Assembly (NCBI RefSeq): GCF_023734775.1
Contig: NZ_AP025732.1
Span: 3,292,501 to 3,356,500 of the forward strand
From: Nostoc cf. commune SO-36
GTDB lineage: Bacteria > Cyanobacteriota > Cyanobacteriia > Cyanobacteriales > Nostocaceae
Direction of reading: 5' to 3'
DNA length: 64,000 bases
Positions 10,267 through 18,618 of this stretch are shown here, in pieces; within the stretch, counting starts at the first letter, position 1, and every line of letters begins with the position of its first letter. The notes under the pieces are model-generated. The model was not told the origin of the DNA and ran no database searches. It saw only the letters and a program-made list of their open reading frames with translations. The position numbers and the translations under genes are program-made.

Positions 10267-10965
10267 ATGCTTGAATCGCAGTCAGGAAATTCCCCAATCA
10301 GCAACTTAAGTCGAATAAACATTAACTCCCAGTTGAGCAGTCCTAGCAACATCGTACCGATGGTGATAGAACAATCTGGTATGGGAGAAAGAGCTTTCGA
10401 CATCTACTCCCGCCTGCTGCGAGAGCGGATTATCTTTTTGGGAACGCCAATAGATGATACCGTAGCCAACTCAATTGTGGCTCAGTTGTTATTCCTAGAT
10501 GCCGAAGACTCAGAAAAAGACATCCAACTGTATGTTAATTCTCCTGGCGGCTCGGTCTACGCAGGGATGGCAATCTATGATACAATACAGCAAATTCGCC
10601 CTGATGTTGTTACCATCTGTTTTGGATTAGCCGCGAGCATGGGGGCATTTTTGTTGACAGCAGGAGCTGCCGGTAAGCGAATGTCTCTGCCCGACTCCCG
10701 GATTATGATTCACCAACCGCTTGGTGGCGCTCAAGGTCAAGCCATTGACATTGAAATTCAAGCCAGAGAAATTCTTTACGTTAAGGCTAAGTTGAATCAG
10801 TTAATGGCTCACCATACTGGTCAACCCTTAGAAAGACTTGAAGCAGATACTGAGCGCGACTTTTTTATGTCGGCAGAAGAGGCAAAAAACTACGGTTTGA
10901 TTGATCAGGTCATTTCCAGGCAAAATCTTCCCGTAGCAGGGGAAAACGTCACCATTCTGAAATAA
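10267..10965 (+). CDS. clpP: ATP-dependent Clp protease proteolytic subunit
   Basis: This 232-residue serine peptidase forms the tetradecameric chamber that degrades proteins unfolded by Clp ATPases. The catalytic triad is intact: S124 (GLAASMGAF), H149 (IMIHQPLGG) and D194 (EADTERDFF). Before the core there is a Ser/Asn-rich N-terminal extension of about 30 residues, which in this family is removed or disordered; the core begins at [10 protein letters not shown]. Only 9 bp separate its stop codon from the clpX start, so the two are almost certainly co-transcribed and their products partner in ClpXP. Confidence 0.95.
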
Positions 10966-10974
10966 GAGGCTGGT

Positions 10975-12315
10975 ATGTCTAAGTACGACTCCCATTTGAA
11001 ATGTTCATTTTGTGGCAAGTCTCAAGAGCAGGTGCGTAAATTAATCGCAGGGCCGGGAGTCTACATCTGCGATGAATGCGTTGACTTGTGTAATGAAATA
11101 CTAGACGAGGAGTTAATCGATACTAATGGTGCGGCAGCACAACCAGCACCGAGAGCAGAGCCACCTCAAAAACGGCGTACCCACTCTTCTAGTATTTCAT
11201 TTAATCAAATACCCAAGCCAAGAGAAATTAAAAAGTATTTAGACGAACACGTCATTGGTCAAGACGAAGCGAAGAAAGTGCTGTCAGTTGCTGTTTACAA
11301 CCACTACAAGCGGCTGGCAGTTATTCAGTCTAAAGCCAGTGGCAAACCTGGGGCAGATGATGCCATAGAACTGCAAAAGTCGAACATCCTGCTCGTCGGC
11401 CCGACCGGCTGCGGCAAGACGCTGCTGGCGCAGACGCTGGCGCGCATCCTCGACGTGCCGTTTACGATGGCCGATGCGACGACGCTGACCGAGGCGGGCT
11501 ATGTCGGCGAGGACGTCGAGAACATCATCCTCAAGCTGCTCCAGGCGTCGGACTACAATGTCGAGCGGGCGCAGCGCGGCATCGTCTATATCGACGAGAT
11601 CGACAAGATCAGCCGCAAGGCCGAGAACCCGTCGATCACGCGCGACGTGTCCGGCGAGGGCGTGCAGCAGGCGCTGCTGAAGCTGATGGAGGGCACCACC
11701 GCCTCCGTGCCGCCGCAGGGCGGGCGCAAGCACCCTTATCAAGACTGCATCCAGATTGATACAAGTAATATTTTGTTCGTCTGTGGTGGTGCCTTTGGGG
11801 GCTTAGAGAAAATTGTAGATCAGAGAGTTGGCAAAAAAGCAATCGGCTTTGTGCAACCAGGAGAAGGGCAATCAAAAGAGAAGCGAGCAGCAGACACTCT
11901 TCGCCATCTAGAACCGGATGATTTGGTAAAATTTGGCCTGATTCCAGAATTTATTGGGCGGATGCCAATGGTAGCAGTCGTAGATCCGCTAGATGAAGAA
12001 GCGCTGATGGCGATTCTCACTCAACCACGCAGCGCCTTAGTGAAGCAGTACCAAAAGCTACTGAAGATGGATAATGTCCAGCTAGATTTTAAAGCAGATG
12101 CTTTACGAGCGATCGCTCAAGAAGCTTATCGGCGTAAAACTGGTGCGAGAGCGTTACGTGGTATTGTCGAAGAATTGATGTTGGATGTAATGTATGAGTT
12201 ACCATCCCGTAAGGATGTGACACGCTGTACAGTTACGAAAGAAATGGTCGAGAAGCGATCGACTGCTGAACTGATAATACATCCGTCTTCACTACCGAAG
12301 CCAGAATCAGCTTAA
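10975..12315 (+). CDS. clpX: ATP-dependent Clp protease ATP-binding subunit ClpX (chimeric sequence)
   Basis: The 446-residue AAA+ unfoldase selects substrates and feeds them into ClpP. The N-terminal zinc-binding domain has C10, C13, C32 and C35; Walker A is GPTGCGKT at 142-149; Walker B is [11 protein letters not shown]; sensor and C-terminal domains follow ([29 protein letters not shown]). The frame is open throughout. However, codons about 136-252 (DNA 11380-11732) are of high GC with codons such as CTG, GGC and CGC throughout, and the peptide there reads like an alphaproteobacterial ClpX ([18 protein letters not shown]), whereas both flanks are cyanobacterial in sequence and composition. 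The protein as written may not exist in the cell. See the findings. Confidence 0.9.
11380..11732. other. Foreign-looking high-GC block inside clpX
   Basis: GC counted over 11401-11460 is 75%, against 47% over 11281-11340 just upstream. The block starts near the codons for SNILL (cyanobacterial AAG then TCGAACATCC) and ends at GGGCGCAAG before CACCCTTATCAAGAC. It covers Walker A to just past the pore-loop region, the most conserved part of ClpX. It contains no HIP1 site. Edges are accurate to about 10 bp. Confidence 0.85.
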
Positions 12316-15718: not shown

Positions 15719-16811
15719 GTGCGATTCGTTGATTAGTGAATCACGGTAAACAGTCCGTAAATAACTAATCCAGCCCGACAGCAGATTACTGTCATTAAAG
15801 GCTGAACTCTCGGTTTGATGTAGGTGAAAGCCCTACCATTCAGACTCAGAATTGACTCCTTATCTGCCCACACCGAACAAGCTCGGTTCTTGTAGAGTGA
15901 AGCTGGGAACAGGGCGCAATCAGACAACCGTTACGGGTTGACACTGGCGCTAATAGGGAGTTCCTATGATGAAACAGGGTCTAGAAAAGCAACTTAAGCC
16001 AAAGCAGGGCGTAACTCCCAAAAACCCCTGACTTCACTGGAGTTTATTCCCGCCGCATTATTAGCCAGAGAAACGGCAAGAGTCCAGGGAATCCAGTAGT
16101 TGAAATGACCACATCTAACGGAACAATCAATCTTTCCGAGGGAACGAATAAAAACGATGTGTGAGTCTTGGGGCAGTCGAACCCCAGGTAGGCTAGACGA
16201 GAAGCGGAACTCTCACAAGTCGGGTAGGACAGACCGTAATTGGTCTGAGGTGTTCAGAATACACAAACTAAAGAAGAGAAAATGATTAGACACAGTTACA
16301 AAACTAGTGAATCTTGGAGAGCGTTACCGTGGAAGAAATTCCGCCGAAATCTTTTCCGCCTTCAGAAGCGCGTGTACAAAGCTGTTCAAGTTGGAAACAA
16401 GCGGAAAGCTAGGTTACTCCAAAAGCTTATTCTAAAATCAACCTCGGCTCGATTTCTTGCAATAAGGCAAGTATCTCAGTTAAACGCTGGTAAAAAGACG
16501 GCTGGTATTGATGGTAAGAAATCCCTCACATTTGAAGAACGCTTCAACCTTGAAGAACTACTGAAAATGAATAGTGGAAATTGGAAGCATCAAGGACTAC
16601 GGGAAATCCCCATCCCCAAGAAGGACGGGACTACCAGAATACTTAAGATACCTACCATCGCGGATAGAGCTTGGCAATGCCTAGCAAAATATGCACTAGA
16701 ATCAGCACACGAAGCCACTTTCCATGCCAGGAGCTACGGGTTCAGAACTGGGCGCTCTGCCCATGATGCACAACAATACATCTTCAAAAACCTACCACAA
16801 AGGCGGAGAAA
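15719..16811 (+). mobile_element. Group II intron, 3'-truncated
   Basis: The element begins with GTGCGATTCG immediately after a TTTGGCTG exon end; GTGYG is the standard group II 5' splice boundary. The 560 bp before the reverse transcriptase ORF are rich in stem-forming segments, as expected for ribozyme domains I-IV. The ORF starts at 16282 and breaks off near 16790. Domains V and VI and the 3' splice site are absent, so the intron cannot splice as written. The 3' boundary is accurate to about 20 bp. Confidence 0.75.
16282..16800 (+). pseudogene. Group II intron reverse transcriptase/maturase, N-terminal fragment
   Basis: About 170 residues of an intron-encoded protein: a basic N-terminus (KKFRRNLFRLQKRVYKAVQ), RT0/RT1-type segments (AGKKTAGIDGKKSLT, IPIPKKDGTTRILKIPTIADRA), and ARSYGFRTGRSAHDAQQYIF, which is RT block 2-like. 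After FKNL the sequence loses all similarity and reads out of frame into the hydrolase exon. The catalytic YADD block, the maturase domain X and any endonuclease domain are missing. The start has a GAAGAG-type ribosome site. Confidence 0.8.
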
Positions 16812-17187
16812 TTTGGCGGTCATGTTGCATATCTTGCAGCCACCTTGCCAGATATTAAAGCTACTGCTTCCTTCTACGGTGCTGGAATTACCACTCGCAC
16901 ACCGGGAGGAGGCGCTCCTACTGTCACCCGCACCAGAGAAATTCCAGGTACTCTCTATGCCTTCTTTGGTACAGAAGATGCTAGCATCCCAGCCGAACAA
17001 GTAGATGAGATTGCAGCAGAGTTAGAAAAATATAAAATTCTTCATCGCGTGTTTCGCTACGATGGAGCTGATCACGGATTTTTCTGTAACCACCGTGCCA
17101 GTTATAATCCTAAAGCTGCGGCCGATGCTTGGGAGCAAGTAAAACAACTCTTTGGTCAACTAAACTGAAGCATACGCAGCCAAGTTA

Positions 17188-17250
17188 ATCATTGGTCATT
17201 GGTCATTGGTAAATACGAAGGACAAATGACAAATGACAAATGACAATCTA
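17188..17250. repeat. Palindromic heptamer repeat
   Basis: GGTCATTGGTCATTGGT on the left is mirrored by ACAAATGACAAATGACAA on the right, around a short spacer. It is the third copy of the family seen at 12316 and 20898. Confidence 0.65.
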
Positions 17251-17295
17251 AACTTCAGTTGCACCATATCAAATAACAACTAATCTTCAAAAGTC

Positions 17296-18198
17296 ATGAA
17301 TTCCGAATCGAAACTTTCTCAAACAGCCAATTCGTCCTTTACAATGGACGATTTTGCCAAAGCACTAGAAAAACACGACTACCAATTTCAAAAGGGACAG
17401 CTTGTACATGGCAAAGTGTTCCAACTTGACCATGATGGAGCTTATGTGGATATTGGTGGCAAGTCGTCAGCTTTTCTGCCACGCGATGAGGCTTCTTTGA
17501 GAGCAGTTACCGATTTATCGGAAGTGCTGCCATTGCAAGAGGAAATGCAATTTTTGATTATCCGAGATCAGGATGCAGAAGGGCAAGTTACCCTTTCTCG
17601 CAAGCAGTTGGAAATTCAGCACATCTGGGAACGACTGACCGAAATGCAGGAAAATGCTCAGACTGTGCAAGTACGGGTTATGGGTGTGAATAAAGGTGGT
17701 GTCACCGTCGATATTCTTTCTTTGCGGGGATTTATCCCGCGATCGCACCTGGCAGAGCGTGATAATTTAGAAGCACTCAAAGGTCAAAATCTGACTGTCG
17801 GCTTTTTGGAAATTAATCGCAACACCAATAAACTCATTCTTTCTCAACGTTTAGCAACTCGTTCTAGCAACTTCAGCTTATTAGAACTAGGTCAACTAGT
17901 AGAAGGCAAAATTACTGGCATCAAACCTTTTGGTGTATTTGTCGATTTAAATGGGATGAGCGCCTTACTTCATATCAAGCAGGTAAGCCAAAAATTCATT
18001 GATTCTTTAGAAAAAGTATTTCAAGTTGGTCAGCCAATTAAAGCTGTAATTATTGACTTGGATGAAGGTAAAGGGCGGGTTGCTCTTTCTACCAGAGTTT
18101 TGGAAAACTTTCCTGGCGAAGTGCTAGAGAATATGGATGAAGTCATGGCTTCAGCTGAGGTGCGTGCTAATAGAGCTAATAACAAAGTATCTGAATAG
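17296..18198 (+). CDS. S1 RNA-binding domain protein (30S ribosomal protein S1-like, short form)
   Basis: A 300-residue protein with three S1 domains: residues about 35-105 (GQLVHGKVFQLDHDGAYVDI), 120-185 (VQVRVMGVNKGGVTVDI...GFIPRSHL) and 200-270 (GQLVEGKITGIKPFGVFVDL...LLHIKQVS). Cyanobacteria have short S1 proteins of this size in place of the six-domain enterobacterial S1, usually two paralogues. This one, with a Ser-rich leader, fits the second type (rps1b/nbp1). It probably binds mRNA or the 30S subunit. It follows the hydrolase gene with a repeat in between and is followed by a terminator-like hairpin. Confidence 0.85.
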   Translation: MNSESKLSQTANSSFTMDDFAKALEKHDYQFQKGQLVHGKVFQLDHDGAYVDIGGKSSAFLPRDEASLRAVTDLSEVLPLQEEMQFLIIRDQDAEGQVTLSRKQLEIQHIWERLTEMQENAQTVQVRVMGVNKGGVTVDILSLRGFIPRSHLAERDNLEALKGQNLTVGFLEINRNTNKLILSQRLATRSSNFSLLELGQLVEGKITGIKPFGVFVDLNGMSALLHIKQVSQKFIDSLEKVFQVGQPIKAVIIDLDEGKGRVALSTRVLENFPGEVLENMDEVMASAEVRANRANNKVSE

Positions 18199-18317
18199 CT
18201 TTGAAGTGGGCCGCTTGCACAAAGTAGAAATAGTGCAATTGCACTTGTGGTAGGTAGAATGAATCGGTGAATATAGCCCAAAAATTGAGCAATAATCCAA
18301 ATAGTGGGTTATTTTGT

Positions 18318-18345
18318 CCCCCTGCATCTACAAAGATGTAGGGGG
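18318..18345 (+). terminator. Hairpin downstream of the S1 gene
   Basis: CCCCCTGCATCT and its complement GATGTAGGGGG flank a short AAA-type loop, followed by ATTAT. A near copy stands at 19811-19848. The distance of 120 bp from the stop is long for a terminator, so it may instead be a dispersed hairpin repeat. Confidence 0.5.
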
Positions 18346-18618
18346 ATTATAAATTGAGAAAACTTTTCACAGACTCTCTTCTTTGATCTGATTAGAAATG
18401 CGGGTAAAAATAATTTCAGCCAGCTTCAGATTGAGAGTCTCAAAATAAATTCTGTGGCAGAGTTGTGGGCAATGCCAAAATTATCCAATAGGTCTATTGT
18501 AAAAATTATTATGTAGTATTAAACTTTTATCTATTGTGATATTGAATCATCCGATTTCAATACGCTAAGATTTACCGCAAAACTTCACTCAGCTAAATTC
18601 TCTACGCGACAATTATTT

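What the first reader, a model, noticed from the sequence alone, without database searches (positions are those of the whole stretch)
11380..11732. Alphaproteobacteria-like 350-bp patch inside cyanobacterial clpX
GC jumps from 47% (counted over 11281-11340) to 75% (11401-11460), and codon use switches to CTG, GGC, CGC and GAC, then reverts abruptly at CACCCTTATC. The encoded peptide in the patch ([29 protein letters not shown]) is of proteobacterial type, but both flanks match cyanobacterial ClpX and the frame is kept. Either the most conserved part of clpX was converted by foreign DNA, which would be remarkable for an essential unfoldase, or reads from an associated alphaproteobacterium (usual in non-axenic cultures or symbioses) were assembled or polished into the gene. 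The block's size, close to a short-read fragment, favours the artefact, but it should be decided by experiment.
Basis: partly seen in the sequence, partly recalled or inferred. Interest (0 to 1): 0.85.

Follow-up and report, generated by a model that had tools for sequence, protein, structure and literature searches.

The report
Contaminant DNA pasted into cyanobacterial clpX
About 350 bases of a cyanobacterium's clpX gene read as DNA of another kind of bacterium, but similar blocks sit in at least four other core genes of the same genome and one of them breaks its gene, so this is most likely an assembly error caused by companion bacteria and not gene exchange in nature.

Summary
Inside an intact 446-aa clpX (10975-12315), donor letters run from 11382 to 11721 for certain and probably to 11733. 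Flanks are 92-97.5% and 90-96% identical to 29 genus relatives, the block 68-71%. The block is 96% identical to the best of 397 sphingomonad-family genomes, has one base private against 20 close sphingomonads, and was seen in no relative.

The deciding evidence lies outside the window. In about 34% of the genome, fusA, tufA, ftsH and clpB also carry alphaproteobacterial blocks of roughly 250-340 bp (gene names). There are at least two donor types: sphingomonad (clpX, fusA, ftsH) and Agrobacterium-like (clpB, 94.9%); tufA is undecided. The ftsH block breaks the reading frame. A conserved part of typA has five one-base indels. The same genes in the relatives compared are clean.

Contaminant reads in the consensus explain all of this; gene conversion between phyla is very unlikely. 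Raw reads were not available and would settle it.

The parts
10975..12315 (+). clpX, 446 aa, open throughout; mosaic of native flanks and a foreign core
   Evidence: ORF; NCBIfam TIGR00382 clpX 688 bits, cut-off 371
11382..11733 (+). Sphingomonad-like block (certain 11382-11721, probable to 11733); covers Walker A, GYVG and Walker B stretches and the beginning of the RKH stretch (motif names recalled); 20 amino acids differ from the genus consensus
   Evidence: donor identity
11377..11381 (+). Left switch: AAGTC, shared by most relatives and most sphingomonads
11734..11735 (+). Right switch: CC, shared by 29 of 29 relatives and 20 of 20 sphingomonads (if 11733 is native or a private change, the switch lies in 11722-11735)

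Best explanation
The block is a consensus error. DNA of alphaproteobacteria present in the sequenced sample entered the assembled sequence where it resembles the cyanobacterial gene most: a sphingomonad's letters replaced the native ones over the conserved AAA+ core of clpX, and native letters resume where similarity drops. Shown: the mosaic and its edges, at least two donor types, five affected core genes, one broken frame, a sixth conserved block with clustered indels, and no such block in the relatives compared. Inferred: that it arose in read correction, polishing or gap filling and not in the cell, and that the living strain has an ordinary cyanobacterial clpX.
For: (1) Similar blocks in fusA, tufA, ftsH and clpB of the same genome (names). 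(2) Donors differ: fusA and ftsH blocks are nearest to G511 among four sphingomonads (93.5%, 91.1%), as clpX is to G511 among 397 (96%); the clpB block is 94.9% identical to an Agrobacterium record and at most 82.9% to the sphingomonads seen. (3) The ftsH block has one base more than two relatives and two sphingomonads, and the gene is split inside it at model position 297/298 of FtsH. (4) typA has five one-base indels in about 250 bp of a conserved GTPase part against each of two relatives. (5) No amelioration in clpX: one private base against 20 sphingomonads, which have 0-7 themselves. (6) Highest donor-codon score in relatives: 13.1 in 29 clpX loci, 13.5 in 4 fusA/tufA loci, 11.3 in 8 ftsH-family loci, 24.9 in 8 clpB-family loci, against 137.8, 92.3 and 79.2, 79.8, 42.8 in this genome. 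(7) Cyanobacterial assemblies are known to suffer from foreign DNA (PMC6059444, abstract).
Against: Reads were not seen. Four of five blocks keep the frame and the exact register. At the clpX edges only AAGTC and 2-14 bases are shared, too short for an ordinary k-mer assembly to jump, so a mapping-based step must be assumed. The assembly scores 99.98% complete and 0.55% contaminated. Three full SSU rRNA copies have equal scores, although their letters were not compared. No donor above 96% was found for clpX. In the first 2.06 Mb scanned clpX stood alone, so the blocks are rare. The clpB codon score is only modestly above its highest control.
Confidence: 0.92

Rival explanations
1. Real gene conversion between phyla: DNA taken up from companion alphaproteobacteria replaced the conserved cores of clpX, fusA, tufA, ftsH and clpB by recombination at the most similar stretches.
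For: Exact register at every block and frame kept in four of five. Recombination also prefers conserved stretches. A hybrid proteobacterial/cyanobacterial SSU rRNA gene has been published (Miller et al. 2005; only the title seen, in a reference list).
Against: At least two donor types, apparently all recent, and none in relatives. One block breaks its gene. Native and donor share only 68-71% in the clpX block and 5 and 2-14 bases at its edges, which is poor substrate for homologous recombination (general knowledge).
Confidence: 0.05
2. A true transfer in clpX alone, while the blocks in the other genes are artefacts.
For: clpX has the longest block and the highest score, 137.8.
Against: fusA and ftsH blocks have the same anatomy and the same sphingomonad donor type, so one cause is simpler.
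Confidence: 0.02
3. An older sphingomonad block shared by a lineage of this genus.
For: None found.
Against: Absent from 29 of 29 relatives compared letter by letter; best match outside this genome in an order-wide search 78% (199 of 388 genomes matched); no amelioration. A genome of the same species was not available.
Confidence: 0.01

Closest known systems
Foreign DNA in public cyanobacterial assemblies (Cornet et al. 2018, PMC6059444; abstract and section list seen)
   Same: Cyanobacteria are hard to keep axenic, and foreign bacterial DNA enters their assemblies; the abstract puts more than 5% of 440 assemblies as highly contaminated.
   Different: That survey ranks assemblies by foreign content; here the foreign DNA sits as short blocks inside native core genes of an assembly with low measured contamination.
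Hybrid proteobacterial/cyanobacterial SSU rRNA gene (Miller et al. 2005, PNAS; title seen in a reference list; content recalled)
   Same: A proteobacterial fragment replaces the homologous part of a conserved cyanobacterial gene.
   Different: As recalled, that was a single rRNA locus in a cultured strain; here are five protein genes, at least two donor types and a broken gene.
Short-patch illegitimate recombination during DNA uptake (recalled; the search listed no paper on it)
   Same: Short foreign patch joined at microhomologies.
   Different: Recalled patches are mostly shorter and single. Not tested here.

Membership tests
Assembly or polishing chimaera from contaminant reads | Foreign block with letters of a plausible companion bacterium and no amelioration | tested here: met
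   96% to a sphingomonad; one private base against 20
Assembly or polishing chimaera from contaminant reads | Several conserved loci of the same assembly affected, absent from relatives | tested here: met
   Five genes in about 34% of the genome; controls clean
Assembly or polishing chimaera from contaminant reads | Local consensus damage such as broken frames | tested here: met
   ftsH frame break, typA indels; clpX, fusA, tufA and clpB blocks are in frame
Assembly or polishing chimaera from contaminant reads | Raw reads do not support the joined edges | not testable with these tools
   No reads held
Gene conversion / horizontal transfer between phyla | Foreign block in exact register with native flanks | tested here: met
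Gene conversion / horizontal transfer between phyla | Block inherited in the lineage, found in independent assemblies | tested here: inconclusive
   Absent from the relatives compared, but no genome of the same species was held; protein search uninformative
Gene conversion / horizontal transfer between phyla | All converted genes still functional | tested here: not met
   ftsH is split inside its block; it is one of several ftsH-family genes
ClpX family | Full-length match to the ClpX model above its cut-off | tested here: met
   TIGR00382, 688.2 bits, cut-off 370.75, residues 1-434

The most novel reading that the evidence does not exclude
The strain has taken up DNA of several alphaproteobacterial partners very recently and converted the conserved cores of clpX, fusA, tufA, ftsH and clpB, so that essential unfolding and translation machines are hybrids between phyla; the broken ftsH would be a failed conversion in one of several ftsH-family genes.
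Probability: 0.05. Interest if true: 0.95.

Novelty: not a real feature. Interest (0 to 1): 0.12.

Why it matters
As biology it most likely does not exist. It matters as a warning: a five-contig assembly that passes completeness and contamination checks carries foreign blocks inside at least five core genes that are used in phylogenies and transfer scans. Automatic methods would read these as gene conversion between phyla. If it were real, it would be the first case known to me (recall, not searched) of several essential genes converted across phyla at once.

Tried and rejected
Considered and rejected: a chance GC fluctuation; a second, native clpX elsewhere (one match in the genome); an older transfer shared by relatives; a lone event in clpX.

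Led nowhere: the protein search listed 120 of 7996 proteins, none above 89% identity; genus relatives at 93-95% were not listed either, so it says nothing about other copies of the hybrid. The strain was not identified: contigs of 6.80 Mb, 271, 229, 70 and 36 kb fit none of the strains described in the parts read of PMC6645180 (part 1 of 3), PMC12060705 (whole) and PMC10652992 (whole). Paper searches for Nostoc with sphingomonads and for short-patch recombination listed nothing that I used. Chimaerism of SSU rRNA was not tested, because the letters could not be cut out.

Flaws of my own: 14 of 29 genus loci were compared in the wrong orientation and its 11 donors are not all sphingomonads by title (one is Actirhodobacter); one search repeats the identities and the diagnostic sites in the right orientation. 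The GC3 figure printed is in the wrong phase and is not used. One search failed part-way on a file name; one search repeats it. The codon scan sees only foreign DNA with high-GC codon use, and about 66% of the genome was not read, so five genes is a lower bound.

Full report
What is there. The window lies in a 7.41-Mb cyanobacterial assembly of five contigs, 99.98% complete with 0.55% contamination. clpX is one open frame at 10975-12315, just behind clpP at 10267-10965. From 11382 to 11721, and probably to 11733, its letters are those of a sphingomonad. Against 29 genus relatives (those fetched of 51 others with a match) the left flank is 92.3-97.5% identical, the right flank 89.5-96.4%, the block 67.6-70.7%. 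Three bases before the left switch are native in 29 of 29 relatives; the G at 11382 is in none of them and in 17 of 20 sphingomonads. C at 11721 and C at 11733 are in none of the 29 and in 16 and 4 of 20 sphingomonads; by 11737 the letters are native again. The switch is clean at both ends.

The donor. The 115 translated residues are 100% identical to a Sphingomonadaceae MAG and 97-98% to several Sphingosinicella, Sphingomonas and Sphingopyxis records. In DNA the best of 397 genomes in the family of G428 (the genome of a record titled Sphingomonas) is G511 with 96%, 14 of 349 bases differing; G511 itself is unnamed. Only one base of the block is private against the 20 closest, which have 0-7 private bases themselves, and its GC of 67% lies within their 65-68%. 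So the block shows no trace of time spent in a 41%-GC genome. Twenty amino acids differ from the genus consensus. In the genus search the best other genome reached 90% over the whole gene; in the order-wide search 199 of 388 genomes matched the block and the best besides this genome was 78%. This genome has a single clpX match.

Is it alone? I read about 34% of the genome: 2.4 Mb in tiled stretches, the window, and loci of AAA and GTP_EFTU family genes. Codon use was scored as sphingomonad against own genome. In the first 2.06 Mb clpX stood alone. The next 400 kb and the family loci showed more. Over 1482 ORFs of at least 200 aa (loci overlap, so some genes count twice), donor-like blocks in otherwise native genes are in clpX (137.8), fusA (92.3), ftsH (79.8, plus 24.4 in the next frame), tufA (79.2) and clpB (42.8). 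Gene names come from NCBIfam models. Letter-by-letter comparison with relatives and sphingomonads shows in each a dense, bounded cluster: fusA C1:2730789-2731036, tufA C1:2732995-2733255, ftsH about C1:3083471-3083813, clpB C1:3899524-3899818. Two ORFs in L235 (C1:5520001-5540000) score 50.9 and 33.3 but were not compared with relatives; they are left open. A stretch in L275 (22.7) is within the range of the highest control.

Donors differ. Among four sphingomonads, fusA and ftsH blocks are nearest to G511 (93.5% and 91.1%), against 70-71% and 75-77% for the orthologues of four relatives. The clpB block is 94.9% identical to an Agrobacterium salinitolerans record, and at most 81.8% to four sphingomonad genomes and 82.9% to Sphingomonas parapaucimobilis. 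The tufA block is 90.2% to Methylobacterium bullatum, 88.6-89.0% to Sinorhizobium and up to 88.8% to a sphingomonad, so its source is undecided. The plasmid collection samples chromosomal genes poorly; these are nearest hits in a limited set.

Damage. The ftsH block has one base more than two relatives and two sphingomonads; the frame changes inside it and the two pieces match FtsH up to model position 297 and from 298. typA (C1 about 27.7-28.4 kb, minus strand) is native in letters but has five one-base indels within about 250 bp of the conserved GTPase part against each of two relatives, and none in the roughly 170 bp on either side, apart from one longer length difference against each relative. 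Both look like a locally failed consensus.

Controls. The same score reaches at most 13.1 in 29 clpX loci of relatives, 13.5 in 4 fusA/tufA loci, 11.3 in 8 ftsH-family loci and 24.9 in 8 clpB-family loci. By codons clpB (42.8) is thus the weakest of the five; it is backed by 74 positions that differ from all four orthologues, most of them in 295 bp.

Interpretation. DNA uptake and contaminated consensus both favour conserved stretches and both keep register, so the in-frame fit does not decide. The set does: five core genes, at least two donor types, none in the relatives compared, no amelioration where it was measured (clpX), one broken gene, and another conserved part with clustered indels. 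A sample with several alphaproteobacteria and an alignment-based correction, polishing or gap-filling step explains all of it at once. Which step is inference; one possibility is that short reads of the most conserved stretches were sorted to the wrong species, leaving some places uncorrected (typA) and others corrected with the wrong letters. Contamination of cyanobacterial assemblies is documented (PMC6059444, abstract).

Verdict. The feature is most likely not biological, and its interest is practical.

Noticed in passing
own genome C1:2730789-2731036 (fusA) and C1:2732995-2733255 (tufA), outside the window: Alphaproteobacterial blocks inside native elongation factor genes, about 2 kb apart.
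   Followed up: yes
own genome about C1:3083471-3083813 (ftsH), outside the window: Sphingomonad-like block with a one-base length difference that splits the gene.
   Followed up: yes
own genome C1:3899524-3899818 (clpB), outside the window: Agrobacterium-like block (94.9% to a plasmid record) inside a native clpB.
   Followed up: yes
own genome about C1:27671-28371 (typA), outside the window: Five one-base indels in a conserved GTPase part, no foreign letters; the gene is split.
   Followed up: partly
L235:10374-10988 and 16730-18536 (C1:5520001-5540000): GC-rich, hydrolase-like ORFs with donor-like codon use (scores 50.9 and 33.3); could be acquired genes or more foreign DNA.
   Followed up: no
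own genome C1:4238801-4239974: A partial SSU rRNA gene in two pieces besides three full copies; relative G050 has a similar two-piece partial gene.
   Followed up: no
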